Shown piece by piece: positions 17 to 54,107 of a stretch of 54,119 nt of DNA. This DNA is from Jiangella ureilytica (GTDB taxonomy: Bacteria > Actinomycetota > Actinomycetes > Jiangellales > Jiangellaceae). Within the stretch, counting starts at the first letter, position 1, and the number at the start of each line of letters is the position of its first letter. The notes beneath the pieces are model-generated. The model was not told the origin of the DNA and did no database searches. It saw only the letters and a program-made list of their open reading frames with translations. Both the position numbers and the translations under genes were made by a program. Location: the NCBI RefSeq assembly GCF_004348545.1, contig NZ_SMKL01000041.1, positions 1 through 54,119 of the forward strand, written 5' to 3'.

Positions 17-164
17 CCCCGTCCCCCTGATAGCTGCCCGTTCTTATGCCCCGGGTGCCCGGGTCAAGTCCAAGCGCCCCGACCCCGGCGGCGCGCAAGC
101 ACAGAGCGCGCGGACTTGAGGCGGGTGGCCGGGGTTAAGAGAATGGGCAGCAAGGGGGACGGGG
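17..164 (-). repeat. Large imperfect palindromic element, copy A
   Basis: This is a 148-nt imperfect palindrome. The outer arms (17-46 and 135-164) pair through GTCCCCCT/AGGGGGAC, GCTGCCC/GGGCAGC and TTCT/AGAA. The inner arms pair through TCAAGTCC (64-71) and GGACTTGA (112-119). Between them CCCCGG (49-54) pairs with CCGGGG (129-134) and CCCG (58-61) with CGGG (122-125). A second copy in inverted orientation lies at 53983-54107. Identical blocks are 17-46 (30 of 30), 62-80 (19 of 19), 106-121 (16 of 16) and 135-152 (18 of 18). The strand is assigned because the element starts 29 nt after the stop of the minus-strand GNAT gene, in the same sense as copy B relative to its upstream gene. It could be a 3'-end structured RNA or terminator, or a non-autonomous mobile palindrome. 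No target-site duplication is obvious. Confidence 0.85.
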
Positions 165-192
165 AGCCCACCTCACCACCCCGGCGAACGCA

Positions 193-684
193 TCAACTCA
201 GCTCACGCTTGAGATACACCAACTCACCATCGCCATCCACATCGGCGTGATGACGAACGAAGCCGACCTTGTCGAGCACCCGGAGCGACGCGGCGTTCCA
301 CGGCCGGACCGTCGCCCACACCCGCTCCCGGCCGGTCTCCGCCGCAGCCGACACCACCGCGCGAGCCGCCTCCGTCGCGTACCCGTGCCCGTGGTGGCGC
401 CGCAGCAGCTCGTACACGATCTCCGGCTCGTCCACCGTCGACCGCCCGACGATCAGGCCGCAGTACCCGAGCGCCGCACCGTCGGCCCGCCGCCGCACGG
501 TCAGCAGCCCGAGACCGGACGACATCGCAGCGACACGCTGTGAAGCCAGCCGCTCCCGCATCTCCTCCACCCCGAACGAGACGTTGGGCGGGTCGTGCTC
601 GGCCAGCAGCTCGAGGTTCCACTCGGCGTCGGCGTGGTCGCGCAGGCGCAACGAGAGCCGCGGCGTCTCGAGCGCGAACCTCAC
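193..684 (-). CDS. GNAT family N-acetyltransferase (RimJ/RimL-like)
   Basis: The 163-aa protein has a compact GNAT fold. It opens with a LETPRLSLR strand typical of RimJ/RimL-type enzymes. An acetyl-CoA loop region YELLRRHHGHGYATEAARAV lies near residues 91-110, and the motif-B end reads WNAASLRVLDKVGF near 129-142. The substrate cannot be read from sequence; family members acetylate protein N-termini or small amines. The GTG start overlaps the fbiB stop by 4 bases (GTGA), so it is the last gene of the fbiA-fbiB operon and is translationally coupled. A link to F420 metabolism is only contextual. Copy A of the large palindrome follows 29 nt after its stop. Confidence 0.88.
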   Translation of the reverse strand: MRFALETPRLSLRLRDHADAEWNLELLAEHDPPNVSFGVEEMRERLASQRVAAMSSGLGLLTVRRRADGAALGYCGLIVGRSTVDEPEIVYELLRRHHGHGYATEAARAVVSAAAETGRERVWATVRPWNAASLRVLDKVGFVRHHADVDGDGELVYLKRELS

Positions 685-1901
685 AGCGTGACGGTGACCG
701 TCGCGACGTCGACGGGTGGATGGTCGGCGGCGGGTTCGGCGCCGTGGCCGATGGCGACGGCTCCGATGGGGGTCCAGCCGGCCGGCAGGTCCAATTCCGC
801 CGTCGCCGCCGACAGGGCGGGGTCGGGGAACAGCCAGGCCGACGCGAGTCCTTCAGCACCGAGCGCGATCAGCAGGTTCTCGACCGCCGCGCCCAGTCCC
901 AGCAGTGCGTCGGAGCCGTCGACCAGGCAGGGGATGACGACGTACGGCGCCGTGCGCAGCAGCCCGGCCCCGTCCAGGGCGGCGGCCAGCCGCTGCCGCG
1001 ACGCCGGGGACTCGAGCAGCACGAACCGCCACGGCGGCGTGTCGATGGGCCACGGCGCCGAGAAGGCCGCCGCCACGGCCTGCCGCACGACCGAGCCGTC
1101 GACCGCCGCCGGCGTGAACGACGACGCGGTCCGCCGGGCGAGGACGGCCGAGCGCATCGCCTCGGGGGTGCCGAGCCGGAACCGGTCCTCGGCGCTCGGC
1201 CGGATCAGCGCCGCGACCCCGGCGTCCTCCTCGCCGGGTTCGAGCAGCAGGTGCGGCAGCCCACGCACCACGGCGACCGGCATTCCGGACAGTTTCGCGC
1301 GGACCAGCTCCGACGCCGCCGCCAGTTCGTCGGCCAGCGCCACCACCGTCACGCCCAGGTCGTTGCCGTAGGGATCGACGCTGCCGCGCAGGTCGTCGAC
1401 GGCCCGCACGCCGGCCGAGCCGACCGCGAAGTCGGTGACACCGTTGCGCCACACGCGCCCGGCGGTGTCCGTCACCACGACCCCCACGCGCACGCCGAAC
1501 CGCGCCGCCAGCCCGTCGCGCAGCCGCCGCGCCGACCCGTCCGGGTCGACCGGCAGCAGCACGATCGACCCGAGCTCGACGTTCGACGCGTCGACTCCGG
1601 CGGCGGCCATGACGAAGCCGTGCCGTGTCTCGACGATGCGGGTGCGCCCGCGCGGCGTGGTCCACTCCGAGATGGTCCGGACCGCCTCGGCGTCGATGGC
1701 GGCGTCGCGGTCGATGCCGGCCACGATGCGGCCCTCGGCCTTGCTCACGATCTTGCTGGTGACGACGACGATGTCGCCGTCGCGCAGGGCGTCGCCGGGC
1801 GGAGCCGACTCGAGCGCCGTCGCCAGGATGCCGACGAGGTCGTCGCCCGGCCGGACCTCGGGGATGCCGGGCAGCCCGAAGGCCTCGTACCGCGTGCTCA
1901 C
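681..1901 (-). CDS. fbiB: Coenzyme F420-0:L-glutamate ligase / dehydro-F420-0 reductase (FbiB)
   Basis: The 406-aa two-domain protein has the full-length FbiB layout. Residues 1 to about 245 form the CofE-type F420:gamma-glutamyl ligase domain, including VVTSKIVSKAEGRI and VVVTDTAGRVWRNGVTDFAVG. The C-terminal part, from about 255, is a nitroreductase-like flavin domain (LARRTASSFTPAAVDGSVV...). FbiB adds the poly-glutamate tail to F420 and reduces the dehydro intermediate in the cytoplasm. The GTG start at 1901 overlaps the fbiA stop by 4 bases, and its own stop overlaps the next GNAT start. The frame stays open far upstream, but homology begins at VSTRYEAFGLPGI, so the longer frame is rejected. 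Confidence 0.95.
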   Translation of the reverse strand: MSTRYEAFGLPGIPEVRPGDDLVGILATALESAPPGDALRDGDIVVVTSKIVSKAEGRIVAGIDRDAAIDAEAVRTISEWTTPRGRTRIVETRHGFVMAAAGVDASNVELGSIVLLPVDPDGSARRLRDGLAARFGVRVGVVVTDTAGRVWRNGVTDFAVGSAGVRAVDDLRGSVDPYGNDLGVTVVALADELAAASELVRAKLSGMPVAVVRGLPHLLLEPGEEDAGVAALIRPSAEDRFRLGTPEAMRSAVLARRTASSFTPAAVDGSVVRQAVAAAFSAPWPIDTPPWRFVLLESPASRQRLAAALDGAGLLRTAPYVVIPCLVDGSDALLGLGAAVENLLIALGAEGLASAWLFPDPALSAATAELDLPAGWTPIGAVAIGHGAEPAADHPPVDVATVTVTL

Positions 1902-2878: not shown

Positions 2879-2885
2879 AGCCACG

Positions 2886-2891
2886 ACCGTA
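2886..2891 (-). promoter_or_regulatory. Leaderless -10 box of fbiA
   Basis: TACGGT on the minus strand lies 7 nt before GTG 2878. This is the spacing of a leaderless actinobacterial transcript. Confidence 0.5.
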
Positions 2892-9961: not shown

Positions 9962-9968
9962 CCTCGGC

Positions 9969-12786: not shown

Positions 12787-13014
12787 TTCCGCCACGCCCA
12801 GAACATGAGCATGCCGGGTGGTACGTGATTCGCCGGCCATCGCCAGGGGAAACACTTACACGTATCCACTTTCAAGCCCGTAAAACCTCATAAAGAAGCT
12901 CTCACCATTGCCTTACAGATGTCTCATGCCTCAGCGGGAAGCTTGCACCGTCGATATCCAGGTGGGGCATGCGGAGAGACCCGTGGGGGGCCTCCGCAGG
13001 GGGGCGGGATTGTC
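12787..13014 (+). promoter_or_regulatory. Low-GC upstream region of the giant gene, with leader hairpin
   Basis: From about 12860 to 12950 base composition drops to roughly half GC, far below the surroundings, as expected of a promoter/operator region. Short related A-rich motifs (GTAAAACCTC, CATAAAGAAG) may be regulator sites, but no convincing -35/-10 pair is visible. A 7-bp hairpin (TGCGGAG 12970-12976 with CTCCGCA 12992-12998) lies just before the G-rich ribosome site of ATG 13015. Confidence 0.4.
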
Positions 13015-16000
13015 ATGCTCAAGGGGCGGACTCTGCTCGGCATGCGCGTCACGCGCGGCCGATTCCGTGCCATCGTCGCGTTACTCGCGGCTTTGGGCAC
13101 GGTGGCGGGCATCATGGCGCTGACGGCGCCATCTGCGCTCGCCGGCGAGACCTTCGTGGTCACCAGTACAGCTGATGCGGCCGACGCCGATGTGGGCGAC
13201 GGCATGTGTCTCACCGGGGCGGGCGAATGTACGCTGCGCGCCGCGATCCAGGAATCCAACGCGTCGACGGCGCCCGACGTCGTCCAGGTGCCGGCCGGCA
13301 CGTTCGAGCTGGCCATCGCGCCGGCCGGCGACAACGGCGCCGATACCGGCGACCTCGACATCACCGCACCGGTCACCGTCAACGGTGCGGGTGCCGCGGC
13401 GACCGTGATCGACGGTGGGGACGCCCCGTCCGGGTCGCCGCCGGAGCAGACGGCACTGGACCGGGTGCTGGAGATCCAGGAGACGGCCGGGGCGGTGACG
13501 CTCTCCGGCCTGACGCTGCGTGAGGGCTTCGCCGGCGAGGAGGGCGGTGCCCTCTACACCGCGTCCGGCGGCAACATCCGCCTCAACGGCGTCAACGTCA
13601 CCGACAGCGAGGCGGTCGGCGACGGCGGCGGCATCTACGCGCTGACCGGCACGGTCACCATCACCGGCGGCGCGATCACCGGCAACACCGCCCACAACGG
13701 CGGTGGCGTGTTCGGGGCCGGCGAGCCGAGCCTGACCGGCGTGCCGAGCCGCCTGAGCATGAGCGGCGTCACGGTCGACGGCAACTCCGCCGCCTCGGGC
13801 GGTGGCGTCATGGTCGACCACGAGGGCGCGCTCAACCTGACCAACAACACGATCACCGACAACCACGCGACCGACGGCGACGGCGGCGGCGTGGTCGCCG
13901 GCTCGAAGGCGAGCCTGTCGATCCGCGGCGGCACCATCGAGGCCAACTCGGCGGTCGGCGACGGCGGCGGTGTCTTCACCGGCGTCGAGCGCCCCGTGTC
14001 CGTCAAGGACGTCGCCTTCACCGGCAACGCGGCCGGGGTCGAGGTCGAGGGCGTGGCCGAGGGCTCCGGCGGCGGTCTGTTCGCCGGCGGCAGCGGCCCG
14101 GTCGTCGTCGAGGCGTCGCGCTTCACCGAGAACGAGGCCGGCACCGCCGGCGGTGGTATCGCGCTGGAGAACAACGGCTCGGTGAACATCGAGAACACCG
14201 AGATCACGGGCAACAGCGCCGAGGCCGGCGGCGGTCTGCTGAACGCGGCCGCGCGGGTCACCGTCACCGGGCTGACCATCACGGGCAACGAGGCCGAGCT
14301 CGACGGCGGCGGCATCCTCAGCGAAGGCAGCGGCGACTTCACGATCAGCGAGACCACGGTCCGCGGCAACACCGCCGAGAACGGCGGCGGCCTGGCCAAC
14401 GAGGCGGACGGCGCGCTGCGGGTCGAGGCGTCGACGTTCTGGGACAACCGCGCCATCGCCCGGTTCTCCGACGACACCGGCCTGGGCGGCGGCATCTACG
14501 GCCTGGGCGACGCCGAGGCGAACTACGAGAACGTCACCATCACCGGCAACCTCGCCCAGGTGCGAGGCGGCGGTCTCTACATCGACGCCGACGCCGCGGT
14601 GCACGTGTCCAGCACCACCATCGCGCACAACAGCGCGCCCGCGGCCAGCGGCGTCGGTGGCGAGGTCACCGTCCCGGCCGTACCGATCCAGCCCAGCACC
14701 AGCGTGATGTTCCGCAACACGATCGTCTCGGACAACCTGATCGGCCCGAACTGCAACTTCGCCATCGGGTCCGAGGGCGGCAACCTCGACTCCGGCGACA
14801 CCTGCCACTTCCGCGGCATGCGCGACCGCCAGAACGCGGTGACCGCGAGCCTCGACGCCGTCGCGGACAACGGCGGCCCGACCATGACCATGGCGCTGCG
14901 CGAGGACAGCTTCGCCGTCGACGGCGGCGTCGAGCCGTGCCCGACGGTGGACCAGCGCGGCGTCAGCCGGCCGCAGGGCAACCAGGTCGACCCCGACGAC
15001 AACAAGTGCGACGGCGGCGCGTTCGAGTACGAGGGCCCGTTCGCCGCACCGGACGTCAGCCCGCCGAACACCGCGTACGTCTCGGGCCCGATCCAGGACA
15101 CCGAGAACACGTCGCTGTTCACGTTCACCGGCATCGACGACGTCACGCCGGCCGACGAGCTGCTCTACGAGTGCCGCCTGCTCGAGTTCGAGCCGGGTGA
15201 GCCGCCGGAGCCGCCGGACCCGACCGAGCCGCTCGACCCCGAGGAGATGTTCGTCGGCTGCCCGAACCCGTGGCAGGTCGAGCTGGTCGAGGACGGCGTG
15301 TTCCTGTTCGAGGTGCGCGCGATCGACCGTGCGGGCAACGTCGACCAGAGCCCGGCGTCGCACTCCTTCGAGCTCCAGCCCGACGGCACCGCGCCGAACA
15401 CCGTCTTCCAGGAGACCCCGCCGAACCCGAGTGACCGCAACTCCGCGGCGTTCACCTTCACCGGCACCGACGACCGCACCGCGGCGCAGTTCCTGGAGTT
15501 CGAGTGCCGCATCGACACCGTCGACCCCGACGCGTGGCTCGAGTGCTTCAACCCCGCCGTGTTCTCGAACCTGGCGCCGGGTGAGCACACCGTGCAGGTG
15601 CGCGCCATCGACGGCGAGGGCAACGTGGACCCGACGCCGGCCACCCACACGTGGACGGTGACCGAGCCCACCAGCTGCACCGCGGCCAACATCATCCTGC
15701 AGGCGACGGCCGACACCCACGTCGAACAGGGTGTGCCGCTGGACAACTTCGGCGCGTCCGAGGAACTGGTCGTGCGGTCCAACGAGCCGGACCAGAACGC
15801 CCGGTCGTACGTGCGCTTCCCGCTGCCCGACGTCCCGGACACCTGTGTCCTGGAGCGGGCGACGCTGCGCCTGCACGGCGATGGCGAGGCCGGCCGCACG
15901 CTCGAGGCCGTCGCCACCGACGCCGCGTGGGACGAGTCGCAGCTGAACTGGAACAACCAGCCGGGCACCACCGGCGCCGCTGTCGCGACCACCTCGGGCG

Positions 16001-19000
16001 CCGGCTACCGCGAGTGGACCATGACGACTCAGGTGCAGTCGATGCTCGACGGCGCCTCGGCCAACCACGGCTGGATGATCCGCGACTCCGCCGAGGGCGA
16101 CCTCACGGGTGCCGAGAGCTCGTTCATCAGCAGCGAGGCCGTGCTCGAGCCGCCGACGCCGCCGCAGCTGGTGCTGCGGTTCCAGGAGGTCGGCACGCCC
16201 GAGCCGCCCACGCCGGACGAGCCGGGTGCGGCCGAGACGGTCGCCTGCGGCCAGGTGATCACCGAGAGCACGCGGATCGACAACGACCTCACCTGCATGG
16301 GTGAGGGCCTGGTCATCGGCGCGCCGAACCTGATCCTCGACCTCAACGGGCACACGCTGAAGAGCGGCCTGGTGGTCGACCCGGGTCAGGAGGAGGGCCT
16401 CTACGCCGGTGTCCGCAACGCCGGGCACGCCAACGTCCACGTCCGCAACGGCTCCATCGAGTGGTTCGGCTACGGCGTGCGGATCCTCGGCGGCGGCGAG
16501 CACGGCTCCGTGCACGACCTCACGCTCGAGAACAACCTCATCGCCGGCGTGGAACTGCACGACGCCGACGACGGCCGCTACGGCGTGCACGTCCACGACA
16601 ACACGATGAACCTCAACGGCGACGGCGTGGCCGCGGTGTTCGGCACCGAGGGCGCCCTCATCGAGGGGAACACCTTCGGCGGCAACCTGGGCCGGCAGGT
16701 CTACCTGTTCGACTCCGGGTACAACCGCGTCGAGGACAACACCGTCAGCGGGCTCACGCACGACCCGCTCCTCGACAGCGACGGTGGCATCTACCTCGAG
16801 AGCGCCAGCGACAACGTCGTCTCCGGCAATGTCGTCTCCGACACCGGTGACGCCGCCATCGCGATCCACGCGGGCTCGCACCGCAACGTCGTCGACGCCA
16901 ACACCTCCACCCGGAGCAGCGACTCCGGGGTGTCCGTCGACGACTCCGACGCGGCCGTCGTCACCGACAACGTGCTGCACCTGTCCGGCGGCGCCGGCAT
17001 CACGCTGTCGAACTCGCACCACAGCGAGGTCAGCGGCAACGACGCGCGGTTCAACCCGGGCGGCATCCTGGTGGTCGGCTCGCACGACAACCAGGTCACG
17101 GGCAACGAGGTCAGCCACACCGGCGCCGAGGGCATCGGGGTGGAGTCCGCCCACCGCAACGTCGTCAGCGGCAACATCGCCAACCACGGCGGCGGCGCCG
17201 GCATCTCGGTGACGGCGGAGCTGCTCGACCCGAACGAGGTCCCGATCGACGGCAACGTCGTCGAGGGCAACGAGGCCGTCGGCAACCTCTCCGACGGCAT
17301 CTCCGTCGAGGGCGGCGGCCACGAGGTCACGGCCAACGAGGCGTACAACAACCTCGCCTGGGGCATCAGCGCCGACGTGCTCACGATCGACGGCGGCGGC
17401 AACCTGGCCAGCGGGAACGCCGAGCCGGAGCAGTGCGAGGGCGTCGTCTGTGCGCCCGGCACGGCCCCGCCGGTGCTGCCGCCTGACCTCACCGCGCCGG
17501 ACACGCAGATCCTGACGCAGCCGGCCAGCGGCTCCAGCTCGCTCTCCCCGCAGCAGTTCACGTTCACGGGCACCGACAACCTCGCGCCCGCGACCGCGCT
17601 GCGGTTCGAGTGCCGGCTGGACGCGCCGCCGGACCCGCCGCCGCCGGTCCCCGAGCCGGGCGAGCCGCCGCAGCCGCCGGACGTCGACAACTGGGTCGAG
17701 TGCTCCAGCCCGCAGGTCTACCCGTTCCTGCTGTCGGGTGAGCACGTGTTCGAGGTGCGGGCGATCGACCCGTACGACAACGTCGACCTGACCCCGGCCA
17801 AGGTCACCTGGACCGTGGTCCCGGCCCCGCCGGGCGACGACGACCTCGCGCCGAACACCACCATCGCCGAGGCCCCGGAGGACCCGTCGACGTCCGAGGA
17901 CGCGACGTTCGCCTTCCGCGGCTCCGACAACGCCACGCCCGGTCCGTTCCTCACCTACGAGTGCCGGCTCGACGGCGGCGCCTGGGGCGACTGCGTCAGC
18001 CCGGCCACGTACACCGGCCTGGGCCTCGGCGAGCACACGTTCGAGGTGCGCGCCAGCGACGTCGCGGGCAACACCGACGCGTCCCCGGCCGTCCACACCT
18101 GGACGATCGTGATCCCGCCGGACGACACGACGGACCCCGAGACGACCATCGACTCCGGACCCGACGTCACCACGGTCGACACGACGGCGACGTTCACGTT
18201 CTCGTCCAACGAGGCGGGCGCGACGTTCGAGTGCAAGCTCGACACCGCCGAGTGGGCGGCGTGCACCTCGCCGGCCGAGTACGCCGGTCTCACCGTCGGC
18301 GAGCACCAGCTGCAGGTCCGCGCGACCGACCCGGCCGGCAACGTGGACGAGTCGCCCGCCGGCTACCTGTGGACGGTCAGCGCCGCCCCGGTCGCCACGA
18401 CGGTCACCTGCGGCCAGGTGCTCACCCAGAGCACGCTGGTGAGCAACGACCTGACCGACTGCGGCGGCGACGGCCTGGTCATCGGCGCCGACGGCATCAC
18501 CGTCGACCTCGACGGCCGGATCATCGACGGCGTCGGGCAGGGCACCGGTATCCGCAACGACGGGTTCGACTCCGTCACCGTCCGCAACGGCACCGTCCAG
18601 GAGTTCGACCTCGGCGCCTCGCTGAACTCCGGCGTCGCGATGAACATCGTCGACGGACTGACGCTGCAGTCGACCATCACGGCCGCGGTCCAGCTGACCA
18701 ACGCCGACGACGGCACCAACGGCAACACGGTCCGCAACAACGAGATCGCGGGCAACGCCATCGGTGTCTTCCTGCAGGCCGGCACGCAGAACGCGTCGGT
18801 CACCGGCAACATCATCAGCGGGAGCACCGAGCAGGGCGTCTACCTGCTCAACTCCAGCGGCAACACCTTCGCCGGCAACCAGATCAACGGCACCAGCAAC
18901 GCCGGTGTCCAGCTGGACGGCTCGAGCACCAACGTGTTCCGCGAGAACGAGGTCAACACGAGCTCCGACGCCGCGATGATGGTTCAGATGGGCTCGCACG

Positions 19001-22000
19001 GCAACCGCATCGAGGGCAACACGCTCTCCGAGAGCGAGGCCGGCGTCATCGTCCTCGAGTCCAACGGCACCCAGATCGTCGGCAACGCCGCGACGACCAA
19101 CGGTGACGTCGGCATCGAGCTGGAGGCCGCCCAAGGCTCGCTCATCCGGGACAACGACGTCCGCTACAACACCGGCGGCATCGCGCTCAGCGGGTCCAGC
19201 GGCAACCACGTCGAGGCCAACAACGCCAGCGACAACGGCGGCGTCGGCATCGAGGTGGGCGACGAGTCGCTGAGCAACGTCCTGCTGGGCAACGTCGCGA
19301 TCGCCAACGACGGCGAGGGCATCGCCGTCAACTCGTTCGCGCCGCCCGGCTCCGGCACGCTGATCCAGGGCAACACCGCCAACAGCAACGCCGCGGACGG
19401 CATCGCCGTCAACGACCTCGGCCACATGATCGGCGGCAACGTCGCGAACAACAACGGCGGCTGGGGCATCTACGCGGCCACCGGCAGCGTCGCCGGCATC
19501 AACGTCGACGGCGGCGGCAACCGCGCCTTCGGCAACGTCGGCGGCGGCATCGACCCGGTGACGCAGCGAGTGATCCAGTGCTTCAACGTCGACTGCGACG
19601 GCGGACCGCCGCTGCCGACCGACCAGGTGGCGCCGGACACGTCGATCGTCTCCGGCCCGAGCGACCCGACCACCAGCACCTCGGCGACCATCACGTTCAC
19701 CGGCAGCGACAACGCCACGACCGTGACCTTCGAGTGCCGGCTGGACGGCGGCGCCTGGGCACCGTGCACCAACCCCGTCACGTACACCGGCCTGGGCATC
19801 GGCGAGCACGTCGTCGACGTCCGTGCCACGGACTGGACGGGCAACGTGGACGAGACGCCGGCCCAGCACGCCTGGACCGTCGAGACGCCCCCGCCGGGCG
19901 TCGCTCCGGAGACGACCATCGACTCCGGGCCGGACGCGATGACCGTCAGCACCACGGCGTCGTTCACCTTCTCCTCCAACGAGGAGGGCGTGACGTTCCA
20001 GTGCAAGCTCGACGCGCTGCCGTACGTGAACTGCACCTCGCCGGCCACGTACACCGGCCTCTCGGTCGGTGCGCACACGCTGCTGGTGCGGGCGATCGAC
20101 GGTGAGGGCAACGTCGACGCCTCGCCGGCCGAGTACGGCTGGACCGTCGGCGCCGCACCGGTGCCCGCCACCGTGAGCTGTGGGCAGACCATCACGCAGA
20201 GCACCCTGGTCATGAACGACCTGACCGGCTGCGGCGGTGACGGCCTGATCATCGGCGCCGCGGGCATCACGCTGGACCTCGGCGGGCACCTCCTCGAGGG
20301 GTCCGGCCAGGGCGCCGGCGTGCGGAACTCCGGCTTCGACAGCGTCGCGATCGTCAACGGCTCCGTGACGGACTTCGACTTCGGGGTCCAGCTCGGTGAC
20401 GGGGTCGCGAGCAACGTCGTCGCCTCGATCCTCGCCACCGCCAACCAGGACGCCGGCATCGGGCTGAACGGCACGGACGGCGGCAACACCGTCCGGACCA
20501 GCACGGTCAACGAGAACACGGCCGGCATCGTCCTGTCCGGCGGCACCACCGGCGCCGCCGTGCTGAACAACCAGCTGAGCCTGAACCCGGGCGACGGCAT
20601 CCGGCTCGACGGTGTCAGCGGGAACCGCGTCGAGGGCAACCTCGTCACCGGCTCCAGCGAGTCCGGCATCGCGCTCCTGGCCGCTACCGGCAACACGCTG
20701 CTGAACAACCAGCTGTCGGCGACCAGCAGCACCGGCATCTCGCTCGAGGCGGGATCGAACGACAACGTCCTGCAGGGCAACTCGTCGACCGTCAGCGGGT
20801 CCTACGGCATCAGCGTCATGGAGTCCAGCGGCAACGACTTCATCGCCAACGCCGTCGGCTCGGCCGGCGCCACCGGCATCGCCCTGGACAGCGCCGACGA
20901 CAGTGAGCTGCGCGCCAACGACGTGCGGTTCAACTCCGGCGGCATCTCGCTCATCCAGTCGAGCAACAACCTGCTGCAGGGCAACAACGCCAGCGGCACG
21001 ACCGACAGCGGCATCTCGGTCGAGAGCGAGTCGTTCGACAACGTGATCCGCTCCAACACGGCCGGCGGCAACAACGGCGAGGGCATCTACGTGTCCGGCC
21101 AGGCGCCGTCCGGTCAGGGCAACCTGATCGAGTCCAACAACGCCAGCAACAACGGCAGCGGCGGCATCCTGGTGAACGACGCCGGGCACACGGTCACCGC
21201 CAACGTCGTGAACAACAACGACGGCTGGGGCATCTACGCGCACGAGGACACCGTCGACGGCGGTCAGAACCACGCCTCGGGCAACGCCGAGCCGGCCCAG
21301 TGCTTCACCATCGTGTGCATCATCGGCCCCGCGCCGGGTGCGCCCGACACCGAGATCGTCGACAAGCCGTCGAACCCGAGCAGCAGCCGCAACGCGCTGT
21401 TCACCTTCATCGGCACCGACGACATCACCCCGCTGGGCAACCTCGAGTTCCAGTGCCGTCTCGACAGCACCGACGAGGCGGCCTGGGCGGACTGCGAGAA
21501 CCCGCAGGAGTACACCAACGTGAGCCCGGGCCAGCACCGGTTCGAGGTGCGCGCGGTCGACGAGAACGAGCTGGTCGACTCCACACCGGCGGTGTACGAG
21601 TGGGAGTACGTGCCGCTGCCTCCGGGCGTCGCGCCGGACACCCAGATCAACCTCAAGCCGCCGGCCGAGACGCCGCTGTTCGAGGCGCTGTTCACCTTCT
21701 CGTCGAACGAGCCCGACGTGACGTTCGAGTGCGCCATCGACGACGCCGCCTGGGAGCCCTGCTTCTTCGCGGTCGAGCACGAGTTCGACGAGACCGAGGT
21801 CGGTCCGCACACCTTCCGGGTCCGAGCCACGGACTCCGAGGGGCTCACGGACCTCACCCCGGCCGAGTACACGTGGACGATCACGGGCGTCATCGCGAGG
21901 ATCACCGACGGGCCGGCGTTCGAGCCGGGTCAGGGCACCGAACCGCCCAACGGAGGCGAGACGGAGGAGACGACGGCCACGTTCGAGTTCGAGGCCAACG

Positions 22001-25000
22001 TCGCCGACTCCACGTTCGACTGCTCGCTCGACTTCGCACCGTTCGCGCCGTGCACGTCGCCGATGACGTACACCGGCCTGAGCGTGGGTGAGCACGTGTT
22101 CCGCGTGTTCGCCACCGACCCGGAGGGCGCCAGCCAGCTGGAGAGCACCGAGTACGAGTGGACCGTGATCCCGAGCCTGGACACCGTCCCGCCGAACGCC
22201 GTCATCCAGGGCGGCCCGGCGGACCCGACCGGCGCGGCCACGTTCACCTTCACGGGCACCGACAACGTCACGACCCCCGCGGGCCTGCTGTTCGAGTGCA
22301 GCATGGACAGTGCCGAGGAGGCCGCGTTCTCGGCGTGCACCAGCCCGTGGACCTACCCGAACCCGGAGGCTCCGGAACCGCTCGAGCCCGGTGCGCACGT
22401 GTTCTACGTGCGAGCCATCGACGCGGAGGACAACATCGACCCGACACCGGCGAGCCTGCCGTTCACCTACGGCGGCGACTCCGTGGCACCGGCGGTCACC
22501 TTCATGACCACGCCGCCGGCCTCCACGCCGCTGCCGGACGTGCTGTTCACGTTCAGCGCGAACGACCCGTTCGCGACGTTCGAGTGCAGTGTCGACGGCG
22601 CCGGCTTCGAGCCCTGCGAGAGCCCCCACGAGGTCCAGGGCATGCTGGTCGGGCCGCACGAGCTCCAGGTGCGCGCGGTCGACATGTCCGGCAACGTGGG
22701 CGCCGTCGCGGTCGCCGAGTGGACCCTGGTCGGCCCGCCGGAGACGACGCTGCTGACCACGCCGGCCGACCCGTCGGGCGCGGACGTGAGCTTCGCGTTC
22801 GAGTCCAACGTGCCGGGGTCGACGTTCACCTGTGCGCTGAACAACGGTCCGTTCCTGCCCTGCACCTCGCCGCACGGCTACACCGGTCTCGGCGGTGGCG
22901 ACCACCAGTTCCAGGTCGCCGCGGTCAGCCCGGAGGGCTTCGTGGACGAGTCGCCGGAGGAGTTCTCCTGGACCGTCGACGCACCGGCCGACACCACGGC
23001 GCCGGACACCGTCATCGAGAGCGGCCCGCCGGCCGTCTCCACCGCCGTCGACGCGAACTTCACGTTCTCGTCGCCGGACCCGGGCGCGGGCTTCCAGTGC
23101 GCGCTCGACGGTGGCTCCTTCGGTGACTGCCCGACTCCGTACCTGCTCGAGGGCGTGGCCGAGGGCGAGCACGAGCTGGCCGTTCGCGCCGTCGACGTCC
23201 ACGGCAACGCGGACCAGACACCCGACACGTACACGTGGGAGGTGGACGGCCCGCCGGAGGCGGAGATCACGTCCGGTCCGGAGGTCTCGACGGAGATGAC
23301 GTCGGCCACGTTCGAGTTCGTCTCGGACGAGCCGGGCTCCACGTTCGTCTGCTTCCTCGACGGGGTGGAGGAGCCGTGCACGTCGCCGGTGGACTACACC
23401 GGCCTGAGCGTCGGCGCGCACCTGTTCGCGGTGCAGGCGACGGACGCGAACGGCAACGTCCAGCCGGACTGGACCGAGCACGAGTGGACGGTCACGCCGG
23501 CGATGCCGCCGCAGACGATGCTGACGTCGACGCCGCCGCCGGCCACCACGAGTGCCACGACCGCAACCTTCGCGTTCAGCTCCAGCGAGCCCGGCACCTT
23601 CCAGTGCTCGCTGGACAGCGCACCGTTCGCGGCCTGCGTCTCGCCGACGGAGCTGACCGGACTGGCGGCCGGAGCGCACACGTTCGCCGTGCGCGCCGTC
23701 GACCTGGCCGGCAACCCCGACGGCAGCCCGGTGGTGAGCACCTGGACGGTCACGCCGGCCGACATCACCGCGCCGCAGACGACGATCGGTGAGGGCCCGA
23801 CGGGCTCGGTGACCACCACGACGGCAGCGTTCGAGTTCTCGGCCGACGAGGGCGGCACGACCTTCGAGTGCCTCATCGACGGCGGCGCCTGGGGCGCGTG
23901 CACCTCGCCGAAGGTCTACACGAACCTGACGCCGGGCGAGCACACGTTCCTGGTGCGCGGGACCGACACGGCCGGGAACACCGACGCGACGCCGGCCTCC
24001 CGGACGTGGACGATCGCCGAGCCGCCGGTCTGCACCACGCAGACCGTCACGCTCGACGCGGTCGCCGACTCCTGGATCGACCAGGGCAGCTCGTCCAGCA
24101 ACAAGGGCACCGACTCCACCCTCAAGGTGATGTCGAAGAGCGGCTCCAACCTGCGGGCTCTGGTCCGGTTCGACCTGCCCGACCTGGCCGAGGGGTGTGC
24201 GGTGTCGTCCGCGACGCTGCGCCTCAACGCCACGTCGTCGCGGAGCGGGCGGACGCTGCAGGCGATCCGGGTCGCGGCTCCGTGGACCGAGAACGCCGTC
24301 ACGTGGGGCAACCAGCCGGCGACGACCGGCACCCCGGCGACGACGTCCTCCGGCACGGGCTGGCGCACCTGGACGGTGACCCAGCAGGTCAACGCGATGT
24401 ACACGGCGAACGCGGAGCACGGGTTCCTGATCCGCGACGCGTCTGAGAACAACGACCACGAGCAGCAGTTCCGCAGCCGCGAGAGCGGCAGCAACCGGCC
24501 GCAGCTCGTGCTGACCATCGGACCGGCGCCGGAACCGGACACCACGGCGCCGCAGACCACCATCACCTCCGGGCCGGGAGCGGCGAGCGTCCCCTCGTTC
24601 GAGTTCATCGCGGACGAGCAGGGCACGTCGTTCGAGTGCTCCATCGACGGCGGCGCGTTCACCGCGTGCTCGTCGCCGAAGACCTACCCGGGCCTGGTGG
24701 TCGGGTCGCAGCACACGTTCGCCGTCCGCGCCATCGACGCGGCGGGCAACGTGGACGCGACGCCCGCGACGTCGACCTGGACCGTGCCGATCAACTGCGG
24801 CGCCCCGATCACCGTCCCGGCCAGCACCGACGCCTGGTTCGAGCAGGGCAGCCCGTCGACCAACAAGGGCGACGACTCCGCGCTCAAGGTGATGTCGAAG
24901 TCGTCGAACCAGAACGTCCGTGCGGCGGTCCGGTTCGCCCTCCCGGCAGCGCCGTCCGGCTGCGAGGTCATCGGGGCGACCCTGCGCATGTACTCCGACT

Positions 25001-25305
25001 CCTACGTCTCCGGGCGCACCCTGCAGGCGCTGCGGGCGACGGCCGCGTGGACGGAGTCGGGCGTCACCTGGGGCAACCAGCCGGCCACCACGGGGACGCC
25101 GGCGACAGCGCCGTCCGGCGGCGGCTGGCGGACCTGGACGGTGACGGAGCAGGTGCTGGCCATGTACGCGCCAGGCGCCAACCACGGCTTCGTCGTCCGC
25201 GACGCCACCGAGGGCGCCAGCGCCGGACCGGAGCAGTCCTTCCACAGCCGGGAGAAGGGAGAGAACACCCCGCAGCTCGTCGTGACCTTCGGGGCCTCGA
25301 GCTGA
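13015..25305 (+). CDS. Giant secreted beta-helix / Ig-like / DNRLRE repeat protein (4096 aa)
   Basis: Residues 1-43 are a Sec signal peptide (basic start, hydrophobic core, cut after SALA). A CSLREA-type motif follows (about 44-85, CTLRAAIQESNAS). Beta-helix region 1 spans about 156-679, with GGGI turns and TGNxA ladders. Ig-like modules 1-2 and DNRLRE domain 1 (about 888-1059) come next. Beta-helix regions 2 (1076-1476), 3 (1796-2196) and 4 (2384-2766) each open with CGQ-x-x-T-x-S-T and are separated by two or three Ig-like modules. About ten more modules run to 3669, then DNRLRE 2 (3672-3837), one module and DNRLRE 3 (3926-4096). Each Ig-like module has FxCxLD...CTSP, GxHxFxVRAxD and AGNxDxTPA, with paired cysteines. 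No LPxTG, membrane helix or cell-wall-binding repeat ends the protein. A surface or matrix adhesin or glycan-binding role is inferred. ATG 13015 is preferred over ATG 12919 because the signal peptide begins there. Confidence 0.9.
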   Translation: MLKGRTLLGMRVTRGRFRAIVALLAALGTVAGIMALTAPSALAGETFVVTSTADAADADVGDGMCLTGAGECTLRAAIQESNASTAPDVVQVPAGTFELAIAPAGDNGADTGDLDITAPVTVNGAGAAATVIDGGDAPSGSPPEQTALDRVLEIQETAGAVTLSGLTLREGFAGEEGGALYTASGGNIRLNGVNVTDSEAVGDGGGIYALTGTVTITGGAITGNTAHNGGGVFGAGEPSLTGVPSRLSMSGVTVDGNSAASGGGVMVDHEGALNLTNNTITDNHATDGDGGGVVAGSKASLSIRGGTIEANSAVGDGGGVFTGVERPVSVKDVAFTGNAAGVEVEGVAEGSGGGLFAGGSGPVVVEASRFTENEAGTAGGGIALENNGSVNIENTEITGNSAEAGGGLLNAAARVTVTGLTITGNEAELDGGGILSEGSGDFTISETTVRGNTAENGGGLANEADGALRVEASTFWDNRAIARFSDDTGLGGGIYGLGDAEANYENVTITGNLAQVRGGGLYIDADAAVHVSSTTIAHNSAPAASGVGGEVTVPAVPIQPSTSVMFRNTIVSDNLIGPNCNFAIGSEGGNLDSGDTCHFRGMRDRQNAVTASLDAVADNGGPTMTMALREDSFAVDGGVEPCPTVDQRGVSRPQGNQVDPDDNKCDGGAFEYEGPFAAPDVSPPNTAYVSGPIQDTENTSLFTFTGIDDVTPADELLYECRLLEFEPGEPPEPPDPTEPLDPEEMFVGCPNPWQVELVEDGVFLFEVRAIDRAGNVDQSPASHSFELQPDGTAPNTVFQETPPNPSDRNSAAFTFTGTDDRTAAQFLEFECRIDTVDPDAWLECFNPAVFSNLAPGEHTVQVRAIDGEGNVDPTPATHTWTVTEPTSCTAANIILQATADTHVEQGVPLDNFGASEELVVRSNEPDQNARSYVRFPLPDVPDTCVLERATLRLHGDGEAGRTLEAVATDAAWDESQLNWNNQPGTTGAAVATTSGAGYREWTMTTQVQSMLDGASANHGWMIRDSAEGDLTGAESSFISSEAVLEPPTPPQLVLRFQEVGTPEPPTPDEPGAAETVACGQVITESTRIDNDLTCMGEGLVIGAPNLILDLNGHTLKSGLVVDPGQEEGLYAGVRNAGHANVHVRNGSIEWFGYGVRILGGGEHGSVHDLTLENNLIAGVELHDADDGRYGVHVHDNTMNLNGDGVAAVFGTEGALIEGNTFGGNLGRQVYLFDSGYNRVEDNTVSGLTHDPLLDSDGGIYLESASDNVVSGNVVSDTGDAAIAIHAGSHRNVVDANTSTRSSDSGVSVDDSDAAVVTDNVLHLSGGAGITLSNSHHSEVSGNDARFNPGGILVVGSHDNQVTGNEVSHTGAEGIGVESAHRNVVSGNIANHGGGAGISVTAELLDPNEVPIDGNVVEGNEAVGNLSDGISVEGGGHEVTANEAYNNLAWGISADVLTIDGGGNLASGNAEPEQCEGVVCAPGTAPPVLPPDLTAPDTQILTQPASGSSSLSPQQFTFTGTDNLAPATALRFECRLDAPPDPPPPVPEPGEPPQPPDVDNWVECSSPQVYPFLLSGEHVFEVRAIDPYDNVDLTPAKVTWTVVPAPPGDDDLAPNTTIAEAPEDPSTSEDATFAFRGSDNATPGPFLTYECRLDGGAWGDCVSPATYTGLGLGEHTFEVRASDVAGNTDASPAVHTWTIVIPPDDTTDPETTIDSGPDVTTVDTTATFTFSSNEAGATFECKLDTAEWAACTSPAEYAGLTVGEHQLQVRATDPAGNVDESPAGYLWTVSAAPVATTVTCGQVLTQSTLVSNDLTDCGGDGLVIGADGITVDLDGRIIDGVGQGTGIRNDGFDSVTVRNGTVQEFDLGASLNSGVAMNIVDGLTLQSTITAAVQLTNADDGTNGNTVRNNEIAGNAIGVFLQAGTQNASVTGNIISGSTEQGVYLLNSSGNTFAGNQINGTSNAGVQLDGSSTNVFRENEVNTSSDAAMMVQMGSHGNRIEGNTLSESEAGVIVLESNGTQIVGNAATTNGDVGIELEAAQGSLIRDNDVRYNTGGIALSGSSGNHVEANNASDNGGVGIEVGDESLSNVLLGNVAIANDGEGIAVNSFAPPGSGTLIQGNTANSNAADGIAVNDLGHMIGGNVANNNGGWGIYAATGSVAGINVDGGGNRAFGNVGGGIDPVTQRVIQCFNVDCDGGPPLPTDQVAPDTSIVSGPSDPTTSTSATITFTGSDNATTVTFECRLDGGAWAPCTNPVTYTGLGIGEHVVDVRATDWTGNVDETPAQHAWTVETPPPGVAPETTIDSGPDAMTVSTTASFTFSSNEEGVTFQCKLDALPYVNCTSPATYTGLSVGAHTLLVRAIDGEGNVDASPAEYGWTVGAAPVPATVSCGQTITQSTLVMNDLTGCGGDGLIIGAAGITLDLGGHLLEGSGQGAGVRNSGFDSVAIVNGSVTDFDFGVQLGDGVASNVVASILATANQDAGIGLNGTDGGNTVRTSTVNENTAGIVLSGGTTGAAVLNNQLSLNPGDGIRLDGVSGNRVEGNLVTGSSESGIALLAATGNTLLNNQLSATSSTGISLEAGSNDNVLQGNSSTVSGSYGISVMESSGNDFIANAVGSAGATGIALDSADDSELRANDVRFNSGGISLIQSSNNLLQGNNASGTTDSGISVESESFDNVIRSNTAGGNNGEGIYVSGQAPSGQGNLIESNNASNNGSGGILVNDAGHTVTANVVNNNDGWGIYAHEDTVDGGQNHASGNAEPAQCFTIVCIIGPAPGAPDTEIVDKPSNPSSSRNALFTFIGTDDITPLGNLEFQCRLDSTDEAAWADCENPQEYTNVSPGQHRFEVRAVDENELVDSTPAVYEWEYVPLPPGVAPDTQINLKPPAETPLFEALFTFSSNEPDVTFECAIDDAAWEPCFFAVEHEFDETEVGPHTFRVRATDSEGLTDLTPAEYTWTITGVIARITDGPAFEPGQGTEPPNGGETEETTATFEFEANVADSTFDCSLDFAPFAPCTSPMTYTGLSVGEHVFRVFATDPEGASQLESTEYEWTVIPSLDTVPPNAVIQGGPADPTGAATFTFTGTDNVTTPAGLLFECSMDSAEEAAFSACTSPWTYPNPEAPEPLEPGAHVFYVRAIDAEDNIDPTPASLPFTYGGDSVAPAVTFMTTPPASTPLPDVLFTFSANDPFATFECSVDGAGFEPCESPHEVQGMLVGPHELQVRAVDMSGNVGAVAVAEWTLVGPPETTLLTTPADPSGADVSFAFESNVPGSTFTCALNNGPFLPCTSPHGYTGLGGGDHQFQVAAVSPEGFVDESPEEFSWTVDAPADTTAPDTVIESGPPAVSTAVDANFTFSSPDPGAGFQCALDGGSFGDCPTPYLLEGVAEGEHELAVRAVDVHGNADQTPDTYTWEVDGPPEAEITSGPEVSTEMTSATFEFVSDEPGSTFVCFLDGVEEPCTSPVDYTGLSVGAHLFAVQATDANGNVQPDWTEHEWTVTPAMPPQTMLTSTPPPATTSATTATFAFSSSEPGTFQCSLDSAPFAACVSPTELTGLAAGAHTFAVRAVDLAGNPDGSPVVSTWTVTPADITAPQTTIGEGPTGSVTTTTAAFEFSADEGGTTFECLIDGGAWGACTSPKVYTNLTPGEHTFLVRGTDTAGNTDATPASRTWTIAEPPVCTTQTVTLDAVADSWIDQGSSSSNKGTDSTLKVMSKSGSNLRALVRFDLPDLAEGCAVSSATLRLNATSSRSGRTLQAIRVAAPWTENAVTWGNQPATTGTPATTSSGTGWRTWTVTQQVNAMYTANAEHGFLIRDASENNDHEQQFRSRESGSNRPQLVLTIGPAPEPDTTAPQTTITSGPGAASVPSFEFIADEQGTSFECSIDGGAFTACSSPKTYPGLVVGSQHTFAVRAIDAAGNVDATPATSTWTVPINCGAPITVPASTDAWFEQGSPSTNKGDDSALKVMSKSSNQNVRAAVRFALPAAPSGCEVIGATLRMYSDSYVSGRTLQALRATAAWTESGVTWGNQPATTGTPATAPSGGGWRTWTVTEQVLAMYAPGANHGFVVRDATEGASAGPEQSFHSREKGENTPQLVVTFGASS

Positions 25306-47300: not shown

Positions 47301-47304
47301 TCCG

Positions 47305-50920: not shown

Positions 50921-50928
50921 CCCCCCTC

Positions 50929-50997: not shown

Positions 50998-51044
50998 CGT
51001 GTCGGGGGCCCGGCGTTGTCGGAGCCGGACGGCATGATGGGCGC

Positions 51045-51767: not shown

Positions 51768-51951
51768 AGTCGGTCGCGGTTAGCACGAATCGCGACGATC
51801 CAGGTGTACTGAGGGCGTCGAACGGCTAACGTTTGTGCATGGCACCCATTGCTGATCCCTGAACTCTCGGGAGGGCCGGGTGCGTATCCCGGTCATGCGA
51901 GCGCGTGGGTGTCGCTCGCCCGTCTGAAGCCACACGACCGGGAGGTTTCGA
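51768..51951 (+). promoter_or_regulatory. hpf upstream/leader region
   Basis: 184 bp between comF and hpf containing a possible -10 TAACGT (51827-51832) without a clear -35 partner. A GGGAGG ribosome site at 51940-51945 fixes the GTG start. Confidence 0.35.
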
Positions 51952-52599
51952 GTGGATATCGTCATCAAGGGCCGTCACACGACCGTGCCGGAGCGGTTCC
52001 GCAATCACGTCACGGAGAAGCTCTCCAAACTCGACAAGATCGCGCACAAGGTCATCCGCGTCGACGTCGAGATCACGGCCGAGGCCAACCCACGCCAGAC
52101 CGACCAGTCCGAACGGGTCGAGCTGACCCTCCACTCCAAGGGCCCCGTCATCCGGGCCGAGGCCGCCGCCGCCGATCGGTACGCCGCACTCGACCTCGCC
52201 ACCGACAAGCTCATCGGCCGGCTGCGCAAGGCCGCCGACCGCCGCCGCGTCCACCGCGGCAGCCGCACGCCCATCTCGGTGGCCGCCGCCACCGCCGGTC
52301 TCGACCGCGTCGCACCCATCCCCCCGCAGCCGGCGCCGGCCGTGTCCGCCGCCACCGCCGTCGAGGACCGCCCCGACGACTACGCCGTGCCCGACGGCTA
52401 CGCCGTTCCCGACACCGGGCCCATGGTCGTGCGCGAGAAGACCCACCGGGCCGAGCCCATGACGCTCGACCAGGCGCTCTACGAGATGGAGCTGGTCGGG
52501 CACGACTTCTACCTGTTCGTCGACGCCGAGTCCAAGATGCCCAGCGTCGTCTACCGGCGCCGCGGCTACGACTACGGCGTCATCCGGCTCGACGTCTGA
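51952..52599 (+). CDS. hpf: Long-form ribosome hibernation promoting factor (HPF/RaiA)
   Basis: The 215-aa protein has an N-terminal RaiA/HPF domain (about 1-100: VIKGRHTTVPERFRNHVTEKL, ending LIGRLRKAADRRR). A proline/alanine linker follows, then the C-terminal dimerisation domain (about 165-215) MTLDQALYEMELVGHDFYLF...YRRRGYDYGVIRL. Long HPF dimerises 70S ribosomes into inactive 100S particles in stationary phase or stress. It starts at GTG 51952 after GGGAGG. A 15-bp terminator hairpin follows 14 nt after the stop. Confidence 0.96.
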   Translation: MDIVIKGRHTTVPERFRNHVTEKLSKLDKIAHKVIRVDVEITAEANPRQTDQSERVELTLHSKGPVIRAEAAAADRYAALDLATDKLIGRLRKAADRRRVHRGSRTPISVAAATAGLDRVAPIPPQPAPAVSAATAVEDRPDDYAVPDGYAVPDTGPMVVREKTHRAEPMTLDQALYEMELVGHDFYLFVDAESKMPSVVYRRRGYDYGVIRLDV

Positions 52600-52613
52600 C
52601 CCTCGCTCCACGG

Positions 52614-52646
52614 CATCGGCACGTCCTCGCGGAGGGCGTGCCGATG
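52614..52646 (+). terminator. Terminator hairpin of hpf
   Basis: A 15-bp stem (52614-52628 with 52632-52646) with a 3-nt loop contains one G-U wobble if read as RNA. It lies 14 nt after the hpf stop and has no U tract. Confidence 0.75.
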
Positions 52647-52694
52647 TCCGTTGCGGCGCGATTCCAGCGGCCGGACCCTGTCGGTGGGCGCTGG

Positions 52695-52700
52695 TAGCTT
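52695..52700 (+). promoter_or_regulatory. Leaderless -10 box of the YcaQ-like gene
   Basis: TAGCTT lies 7 nt upstream of ATG 52708. Confidence 0.45.
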
Positions 52701-52707
52701 CGCGGGC

Positions 52708-53925
52708 ATGGCTCGACGAGAGAAGCTGTCGATCGCCGCGGCCCGGCGGGTGGCGCTGGCGGCGCAGGGCTTCGCCGACGCGCGCCCCGAGGCGCCCGAC
52801 CGGCGGGCCGTCCGCCGCGTGGCCGACCGCGTCGGCGTCGTGCAGATCGACTCCGTCAACGTCCTGTCCCGCTCGCACTACCTGCCGTTCTTCAGCCGGC
52901 TCGGCCCCTATCCGCGGGCCGAGGTCGACCGCGCGGTCAACAAGTCGCCGCGCATGCTGTTCGAGTACTGGGCGCACGAGGCGTCCATGGTGCCGGTGCG
53001 CACCCAGCCCTACCTGCGGGCGCGCATGGCCCGGGCCGACCAGCTGGCCTGGGGCGGCATCCGGCGGCTGGCGCGCGAGAAGCCCGAGTTCGTGGCCTGG
53101 GTGCTCGAAGAGGTGAAGCGCCTCGGCCCCGTCACGGCGGGCGATATCGAGCACGACGCCCCGCGCGAGAAGACCGACTGGGGCTGGAACTGGTCCGACG
53201 TCAAGACGGCGCTCGAGTACCTGTTCTGGTCCGGCGAGGTCACGTCGGCCGGGCGCAACGGCTCGTTCGCCCGGCTCTACGACATCCCCGAGCGGGTCCT
53301 GCCGCGCCAGGTCCTCGCGGTGCCCGACCCGTCCGAGGAGGAGTCGCATCGCGAGTTGGTCCGCATCGCCGCCCGCGCCCACGGCGTCGGGTCCGAGCAG
53401 TGCCTGCGCGACTACTTCCGGCTCTCCGTCGACGGCGCCAAGCTGGCGGTCGCGCAGCTGGTCGAGGCCGGCGAGCTGCTGCCGGTCACCGTCGAGGGCT
53501 GGAAGCGCCCCGGCTACCTGCACTGCGACGCCCGGGTGCCGCGCCGGGTCGACGCCCGGGCGCTGCTGAGCCCGTTCGACTCCCTCATCTGGGAACGCGC
53601 CCGCACCGAGGCGCTGTTCGGCTTCCGCTACCGGCTCGAGATCTACGTCCCGCCGGCCAAGCGGGTCCACGGGTACTACGTGCTGCCGTTCCTGCTCGGC
53701 GACGCGCTCGTGGCCCGGGTCGACCTCAAAGCCGACCGGCAGGCCGGGGTCCTGCTGGTCCAGTCGGCGTGGGCCGAGCCCGGCTCGCCGGCCGACACCG
53801 CCGAGGAGCTGGCCGACGAGCTGGTGTCCATGGCCGGCTGGCTCGACCTGTCCGGCGTCACGGTCACCGGCCGCGGCGACCTCGCCGCCCCGCTTCAGGA
53901 CGCCCTGCTGCGCGCCGCCGCCTGA
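52708..53925 (+). CDS. YcaQ-type winged-helix DNA glycosylase family protein
   Basis: The 405-aa protein of the HTH_42/YcaQ (AlkX) family has the catalytic-type QxD motif ([23 protein letters not shown], about 46-68). It also has [13 protein letters not shown], the winged-helix block [22 protein letters not shown], and the C-terminal [24 protein letters not shown]. YcaQ-like enzymes unhook interstrand DNA crosslinks; activity here is predicted from family only. ATG 52708 is favoured by the TAGCTT box 7 nt upstream over ATG 52651. Copy B of the large palindrome begins 58 nt after the stop. Confidence 0.9.
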
Positions 53926-53982
53926 CGCCGGGGGTCGACACGGACGTGGGGGTCGTTGGGGGCGTGTGGTTGCGTGGGGTTC

Positions 53983-54107
53983 CCCCGTCCCCCTGCTGCC
54001 CATTCTCTTAAGCCGCGCGGGTGCCCTCAAGTCCGCGCGCCCTGGGGGCGCTTGGACTTGACCGCGCCCGCGCGGCCTAAGAACGGGCAGCTATCAGGGG
54101 GACGGGG
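53983..54107 (+). repeat. Large imperfect palindromic element, copy B
   Basis: This 125-nt palindrome is the inverted counterpart of copy A. The fold pairs 53983-53994 with 54096-54107 (12 bp), GCTGCCC (53995-54001) with GGGCAGC (54085-54091), 54012-54024 with 54064-54076 (13 bp, one wobble as RNA), and TCAAGTCC (54027-54034) with GGACTTGA (54054-54061). The apical stem is GCGCCC with GGGCGC. The segment 54012-54024/54064-54076 differs from copy A yet remains self-complementary. It lies 58 nt downstream of the YcaQ-like stop, in the same sense as copy A relative to its upstream gene. Confidence 0.85.

What the first reader, a model, noticed from the sequence alone, without database searches (positions are those of the whole stretch)
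17..54107. A pair of large covarying palindromes at both window edges: candidate undescribed structured element
Copies A (17-164) and B (53983-54107, inverted) share four identical blocks of 30, 19, 16 and 18 nt that form the outer and inner arms of one long hairpin. The segments between the blocks differ in sequence (CCCCGG with CCGGGG in A; GCCGCGCGGG-type in B) but pair internally in each copy. That is the compensatory pattern expected of selected structure. Both copies lie 29-58 nt downstream of a stop codon, in the same orientation relative to that gene. Explanations to separate are a 3'-end RNA or terminator family, a non-autonomous palindromic mobile element, and a structured DNA site for a host protein.
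Basis: seen in the sequence. Interest (0 to 1): 0.75.

Follow-up and report, generated by a model that had tools for sequence, protein, structure and literature searches.

The report
REP-like palindrome pairs in Jiangella
The two palindromes are real halves of a roughly 500-base repeated DNA element found dozens of times between genes in Jiangella bacteria; it resembles the known REP/BIME repeats but is much larger and lacks the enzyme that usually accompanies them.

Summary
Copies A (17-164) and B (53983-54107, inverted) are covarying palindromes. They sit at both window edges because the window is one whole contig of a draft Jiangella genome whose assembly broke inside the same repeat. The intact unit is about 500 bp: palindrome, hairpin core, palindrome, both palindromes pointing outward (23 of 23 close pairs in this genome; 69 of 69 distinct spacers). 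A covariance model finds at least 83 places here, 63 of them above 100 bits. Ten of 12 Jiangella genomes carry it strongly; ten other Jiangellaceae give 0-2 weak hits each. Units lie at gene 3' ends, about half between convergent genes; they differ in occupancy between species and look homogenised within a genome. Covariation exceeds all 500 shuffles. G.U pairs are tolerated and A.C mismatches avoided on one strand only, favouring a single-strand fold (RNA or ssDNA) over a symmetric cruciform. It behaves like REP/BIME repeats, but the palindromes are 118-146 nt, carry no unpaired GTAG/CGTC tag, and Y1 transposase was found in 0 of 12 genomes. Best reading: a new RAYT-less, REP-like composite repeat.

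The parts
1..16 (.). core-proximal linker of a composite element, cut by the contig end (A-side linker, like CGAGGCGTGCCCAGGG..)
   Evidence: matches the linker between core and palindrome in intact units
17..164 (+). palindrome copy A (long type); GATA-bulge strand is +, pointing away from the lost core
   Evidence: R1 hit 19-162, 117.5 bits
29..32 (+). conserved GATA bulge between the CCCCCT/AGGGGG and GCTGCCC/GGGCAGC stems
   Evidence: unpaired in the fold of A; nearly or fully invariant in 69 palindromes
193..684 (-). neighbouring gene whose 3' end faces copy A (28 nt between)
   Evidence: coding-score caller; context, not part of the element
52750..53925 (+). neighbouring gene whose 3' end faces copy B (57 nt between)
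   Evidence: coding-score caller; context, not part of the element
53983..54107 (-). palindrome copy B; GATA-bulge strand is -, pointing away from the lost core
   Evidence: R1 hit 53985-54105, 114.1 bits
54108..54119 (.). core-proximal linker of a second composite element, cut by the contig end (B-side linker, GGAGTCTGGCGA..)
   Evidence: matches the B-side linker in intact units

Best explanation
A and B are end palindromes of two copies of a non-autonomous, REP/BIME-like composite repeat of Jiangella. Shown: the unit is palindrome (118-146 nt) - hairpin core - palindrome, both palindromes read outward from the core; it occurs in dozens of copies at gene 3' ends and differs in occupancy between species; within a genome its copies resemble each other more than those of the nearest relative; one strand of the palindrome is selected to fold. 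Inferred: the unit is copied, or overwritten by gene conversion, through a single-stranded intermediate, and a trans-acting host enzyme other than the classical RAYT recognises the hairpin on that strand (conserved outer stems, GATA bulge, GT/GAAT internal loop). It accumulates in gaps between gene 3' ends because these tolerate it, and because a strong hairpin there does little harm or some good to the mRNA 3' ends.
For: At least 83 places in the own genome. Model hits, both strands counted and capped at 150 scored candidates per genome: 44-150 in 10 of 12 Jiangella genomes, 2 in G006, 1 in G003, 0-2 (best E 1.8e-6) in each of 10 other Jiangellaceae. Outward pairs 23 of 23 and 69 of 69 distinct spacers up to 900 nt. 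Flanks: 32 convergent, 26 co-directional, 3 divergent of 61, against 21/165/79 background pairs with gap 30 nt or more (chi-square p 3e-17). Ten own sites in 11 congeners, 87 loci: of 64 with both flanks, 15 hold palindrome parts, 8 only a TGATCATC-type motif, 41 neither; of 23 without the right flank, 6 hold palindrome parts. Short gaps without the unit exist. Homogenisation: median best identity 0.970 to own copies elsewhere, 0.889 to G001 copies elsewhere, 0.815 to G001 at the same site (18 palindromes). Strand-specific pairing in the middle helix: G.U 82 observed, 78.8 expected; A.C 4 observed, 24.8 expected; 54 of 69 helices more stable on the GATA strand, 4 less, 11 equal. RAYT absent: PF01797 in 0 of 12 genomes, found in 5 of 14 controls.
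Against: No mobilising enzyme was identified and no recent insertion with a clean junction or target duplication was seen; sequence just outside the palindromes is low-complexity and diverged. The closest relative, G001, has palindrome parts at 9 of 10 sites, so turnover is slow, and gene conversion between old copies would explain the homogenisation without transposition. The comparison takes the best of many partners for other sites but of one or two for the same site, where G001 often keeps only one palindrome, so ends could not always be matched. The core stem shows a weaker strand bias of the same kind (24 of 32 more stable on one strand, 8 less), so the bias is not wholly special to the palindrome. 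Whole-palindrome folds favour the GATA strand in only 139 of 206 (2 equal). At some loci the spacer is a different hairpin (for example L087, L099, L121, L182, L198).
Confidence: 0.6

Rival explanations
1. A host RNA element: the hairpin acts in RNA as a 3'-end stabiliser, terminator or antisense RNA for neighbouring genes. In a read-through transcript the distal palindrome would appear on its favoured strand.
For: Tight 3' placement: 90 stop codons facing units lie at median 44 nt (59 within 60 nt), while 32 start codons lie at median 174.5 nt (1 within 60). G.U tolerance is as expected of RNA. In other species some of the same gaps hold other, unrelated hairpins (read by eye).
Against: The favoured strand of the palindrome next to a gene is antisense to that gene. 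No T-run follows in either copy of the window (by eye). 41 of 64 orthologous gaps hold neither palindrome nor TGATCATC-type motif, so the element is dispensable there. No promoter was demonstrated in the core; none was scanned for with a tool.
Confidence: 0.25
2. A plain MITE: the derivative of a classical DDE transposon with long inverted ends.
For: Multicopy, non-coding (no gene called inside any of 70 units), inverted ends, sites that differ between species.
Against: No parent element recognised: in the seven wider palindrome pairs of G009 that I opened (L342-L348), the genes between the arms read as insertion-sequence transposases interrupting a palindrome or sitting in the core. Each end is itself a complete covarying palindrome selected on one strand, which dsDNA-recognising transposases do not require (general knowledge). 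No clean target duplication.
Confidence: 0.08
3. A structured dsDNA or cruciform site for a host protein (gyrase-, nucleoid- or segregation-type).
For: Long conserved outer stems; REP/BIME repeats are said to bind several host proteins (PMC2817692, abstract start in a search listing).
Against: A cruciform is symmetric between strands, but A.C mismatches are depleted (0.16 of expectation) while G.U is not (1.04). Model hits are 1-2 and weak in G003 and G006, so there is no genus-wide need.
Confidence: 0.07

Closest known systems
REP sequences and BIMEs/REPINs (RAYT-associated)
   Same: multicopy extragenic palindromes, paired in inverted orientation, between convergent or co-directional genes next to stop codons, targets of insertion sequences
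   Different: palindromes 118-146 nt instead of 20-40; a hairpin core between them; no GTAG tag; PF01797 (Y1/RAYT) in 0 of 12 Jiangella genomes
CGTC-tagged REPs (Di Nocera et al. 2013, PMC3733652: abstract, passages and section 15 seen)
   Same: no dedicated transposase known, mostly head-to-head dimers, conv-REPs close to both stop codons; our palindromes also start with CCGTC
   Different: in the two window copies CGTC is inside the paired stem, not an unpaired tag; size differs; the phyla listed in the passages do not include actinobacteria (the word has 0 occurrences), though the paper mentions untagged REP-like sequences in M. tuberculosis
MITEs
   Same: non-coding, non-autonomous, inverted ends, intergenic
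   Different: no parent transposon recognised, no readable target duplication, each end is a complete palindrome

Membership tests
REP/BIME (RAYT-mobilised) | high-copy extragenic palindrome | tested here: met
   at least 83 places in the own genome
REP/BIME (RAYT-mobilised) | unit of 20-40 bp | tested here: not met
   118-146 nt and one of 164, among 208 distinct palindromes
REP/BIME (RAYT-mobilised) | inverted pairs | tested here: met
   23 of 23 and 69 of 69 outward
REP/BIME (RAYT-mobilised) | unpaired GTAG or CGTC tag at the foot | tested here: not met
   no GTAG at the foot; CGTC lies in the paired base of both window copies; not checked copy by copy elsewhere
REP/BIME (RAYT-mobilised) | RAYT / Y1 transposase in the genome | tested here: not met
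   PF01797 0 of 12 Jiangella genomes, control 5 of 14
REP/BIME (RAYT-mobilised) | placed at 3' ends, rare between divergent genes | tested here: met
   32 convergent, 26 co-directional, 3 divergent of 61; p 3e-17 against background
MITE | target-site duplication | tested here: inconclusive
   gaps without the unit seen, but junction flanks diverged and low-complexity (four sites by eye)
MITE | parent transposon with the same ends | tested here: inconclusive
   none in seven wide G009 pairs; only IS-like genes that interrupt the unit; no exhaustive search
Intrinsic terminator | hairpin followed by a T-run on the gene's strand | tested here: not met
   none after either window copy when read from the neighbouring gene (by eye); no terminator scan was run
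Known structured RNA (Rfam) | match to a family | tested here: not met
   0 at gathering in the window; one match at E 0.4, 26.5 bits against a gathering score of 98, in 8 loci with units or cores

The most novel reading that the evidence does not exclude
A class of bacterial mobile palindromes copied through a strand-specific single-stranded hairpin by an enzyme that is not a Y1/RAYT protein, spreading as a symmetric pair of outward-reading hairpins around an exchangeable core and overwriting each other, so that sites persist while sequences are homogenised.
Probability: 0.25. Interest if true: 0.75.

Novelty: new variant of a known kind. Interest (0 to 1): 0.5.

Why it matters
How REP-like repeats without a RAYT spread is an open question (PMC3733652 leaves it open for CGTC repeats). 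Jiangella offers a tractable case: dozens of large copies, several single-contig genomes, two congeners almost without them (G003, G006) and a strand signature that suggests which strand the machinery sees. It also warns that short-read Jiangella assemblies can break at these units: of 83 places in this genome, at least 35 lie within 600 nt of a contig end (contig lengths were known for only part of the contigs).

Tried and rejected
RAYT-mobilised REP: rejected as membership because PF01797 is absent. Rfam families: none at gathering score in the window, and in 8 loci only one match far below its gathering score. Plasmid or phage origin: only three 27-42 nt matches in plasmids (E 0.4 each) and none in phages. 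Symmetric cruciform: disfavoured by the strand test. An autonomous partner between widely spaced outward palindromes in G009: in all seven regions opened (L342-L348) the genes between the arms read, from recalled motifs and not from a family search, as IS1380-, IS5- or IS3-like transposases lying in a palindrome or in the core, so they are taken as insertions. Target duplications of the unit: looked for by eye at four sites, inconclusive. Promoters in the core: looked for by eye only; the promoter and terminator scan was not run. No protein fold, no tree and no gene-content comparison was made.

One search collected 208 distinct palindromes by fuzzy match in the loci then held (206 without N); A1 holds 69 representatives below 93% identity. 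In the structure string the two outermost pairs were out of register with the alignment (59 and 56 cells unpaired); they are counted in the 90.5%. A2: 5 of 37 core representatives dropped (misplaced, duplicated or partial), 4 core-only loci added; core counts use the first 32 rows; 70 units, 61 with genes called on both sides; units at the same site in two species may both be in it. The background comes from the genome-collection loci L109-L210 only (mostly Jiangella; the four non-Jiangella loci were not taken out). The ten sites are 10 of the 18 listed, chosen for a gene ending next to the unit. Of 113 rows, 103 lie outside the own genome and 87 of these were examined. One search printed four of the ten sites. 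In one search some loci were read in the wrong frame or orientation; replace it. In one search some G001 palindromes were picked on both strands; the best match was used. The gene caller is a home-made coding score, not a standard program.
Full report
Observation. The window is a whole contig, C104 of a 6.35 Mb, 168-contig assembly. Searching copy A in that genome gave many further copies. A covariance model (R1, built from 69 palindromes, A and B among them) gives 137 hits that collapse to 83 places when both strands are merged. This is a lower bound, because 150 of 14964 candidates were scored; 63 of the 83 score above 100 bits, the rest are weaker or partial. G003 has the same length, 5,585,780 bases, as published J. 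gansuensis YIM 002T (PMC5292007, passages seen).

Anatomy. At unbroken sites the unit is: palindrome - spacer with a hairpin core - palindrome. The palindromes read outward from the core on the strand with the GATA bulge: 23 of 23 close pairs in the own genome and 69 of 69 distinct spacers up to 900 nt over the loci held. Spacers range from 133 to 773 nt, 43 of 69 between 232 and 262. The usual core carries GTGGACAGCGATGATCATC, a stem of about 30 bp and ATCTCACCACGTGGAC; at some loci (for example L087, L099, L121, L182, L198) another sequence with its own hairpin takes its place (by eye). Core-like sequence is found without the palindromes in loci of G003, G006 and other Jiangellaceae genera. 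A and B in the window are halves of two such units, cut in the core by contig ends. Of the 83 places at least 35 are within 600 nt of a contig end, and 31 of these 35 have the core side towards the end.

Palindrome structure. Outer stems are nearly invariant in sequence (CCGTCCCCCT, GATA bulge, GCTGCCC, then TAAGAGAATGGGCAGCAGGGGGACGG). The middle and apical helices covary: 90.5% of cells paired against 80.1% in shuffles, covariation score 0.275 against 0.097, 0 of 500 shuffles as high, and slid versions at most 0.059 (two outermost pairs of my structure were out of register and are counted). Part of this can come from relatedness of the copies, which the shuffle does not remove; but nine of the twelve pairs of the middle helix change on both sides.

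Strand test. In the middle helix, relative to column composition, G.U/U.G pairs are at 1.04 (82 against 78.8), A.C/C.A at 0.16 (4 against 24.8), G.G 0.37, G.A/A.G 0.74, C.C 0.16, C.T/T.C 0.04. On the complementary strand every G.U is an A.C. 54 of 69 middle helices are more stable on the GATA strand, 4 less, 11 equal. The core stem, from the same kind of loci, gives 24 against 8 of 32, and in the stem columns more G.U than A.C in raw counts, so a weaker bias exists there too. Whole palindromes give 139 of 206 in the same direction (2 equal). I read this as one strand folding as a single strand. It does not say RNA or DNA, since G.T is also a mild mismatch in DNA (established thermodynamics, recalled).

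Placement. Of 70 units, 61 have called genes on both sides: 32 convergent, 26 co-directional, 3 divergent. Other gene pairs in loci L109-L210 give 21, 165 and 79 at gap 30 nt or more (55, 386, 82 in all), p 3e-17 (units are treated as independent). Stop codons facing a unit are at median 44 nt (59 of 90 within 60); start codons at median 174.5 (1 of 32 within 60). The favoured strand next to a gene that ends there is antisense to that gene, as it is for A and B.

Distribution and turnover. R1 hits per genome (both strands counted, capped at 150): 44-150 in ten Jiangella, 2 in G006, 1 in G003; 0-2 weak ones in each of ten other Jiangellaceae. Ten own sites were followed into congeners: of 87 loci, 64 had both flanks (15 with palindrome parts, 8 with only a TGATCATC-type motif, 41 with neither) and 23 lacked the right flank (6 with palindrome parts, 17 without). 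G001, the closest by flank identity, has palindrome parts at 9 of 10 sites; G003 at 0 of 9 and G006 at 0 of 8 examined. Short gaps without the unit exist, for example S3 in G009 and G010 and S7 in G011, and other species hold different hairpins in some of the same gaps (by eye). Own palindromes resemble own copies elsewhere (median best identity 0.970) more than G001 copies elsewhere (0.889) or at the same site (0.815) (18 palindromes at 9 sites; at the same site there were only one or two partners, often not of the matching end). So positions persist between near relatives while sequences are renewed within a genome.

What it is. The pattern matches REP/BIME biology: multicopy inverted palindromes next to stop codons of convergent and co-directional genes. 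Di Nocera et al. 2013 (PMC3733652; abstract, passages and section 15 seen) report the same placement and note that CGTC-type repeats lack a dedicated transposase. Tobes and Pareja 2006 (PMC1525189; abstract seen) describe REPs as IS targets; here too, IS-like genes sit in palindromes at CTTAG/CTAAG in G009. But membership in RAYT-mobilised REPs fails on size, tag and enzyme: PF01797 is found in 0 of 12 Jiangella genomes while the control rings in 5 of 14. I therefore call it a new, RAYT-less REP-like composite family, not a REP in the strict sense.

Limits. No RNA data, no bench data and no identified enzyme. Movement is inferred from occupancy and homogenisation, and gene conversion among old copies remains possible. 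The literature searches showed no description of this family in their listings; one search listed 15 of 31 papers, and subscription journals are mostly missing from the library.

Noticed in passing
L345, L344, L347, L272, L314 (all G009): Insertion sequences interrupt the palindromes at the conserved CTTAG/CTAAG motif. One IS1380-like copy (family name recalled, not searched) in L345 has CTTAG on both sides, i.e. an apparent 5-bp target duplication; an IS5-like one in L344 sits at CTAAG.
   Followed up: partly
L037 (C45:1-4000), L036 (C84), L049 (C44): Tandem partial copies of the 3' half of the palindrome (spacing about 100-110 nt) follow some units.
   Followed up: no
L090-L095, L105-L108: Core-like hairpins with TGATCA and CACCAGG/CCTGGTG half-sites occur without the palindromes in G003, G006 and other Jiangellaceae genera; perhaps a second, family-wide repeat of its own.
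   Followed up: partly
L308, L310, L338, L283, L331: Gaps between gene 3' ends in other Jiangella species hold several other hairpins (e.g. GTTGGCAGTTTGG.., TTGATCATGGAGAAGG.., ATGATCATCAAGGAT.., CGTCCTGGTCTG..), as if such gaps are colonised by many palindromes (by eye).
   Followed up: no
window 12919-25305 (+): One open reading frame of 4128 codons dominates the middle of the window, with a nearly as long antisense open frame (13081-25245).
   Followed up: no
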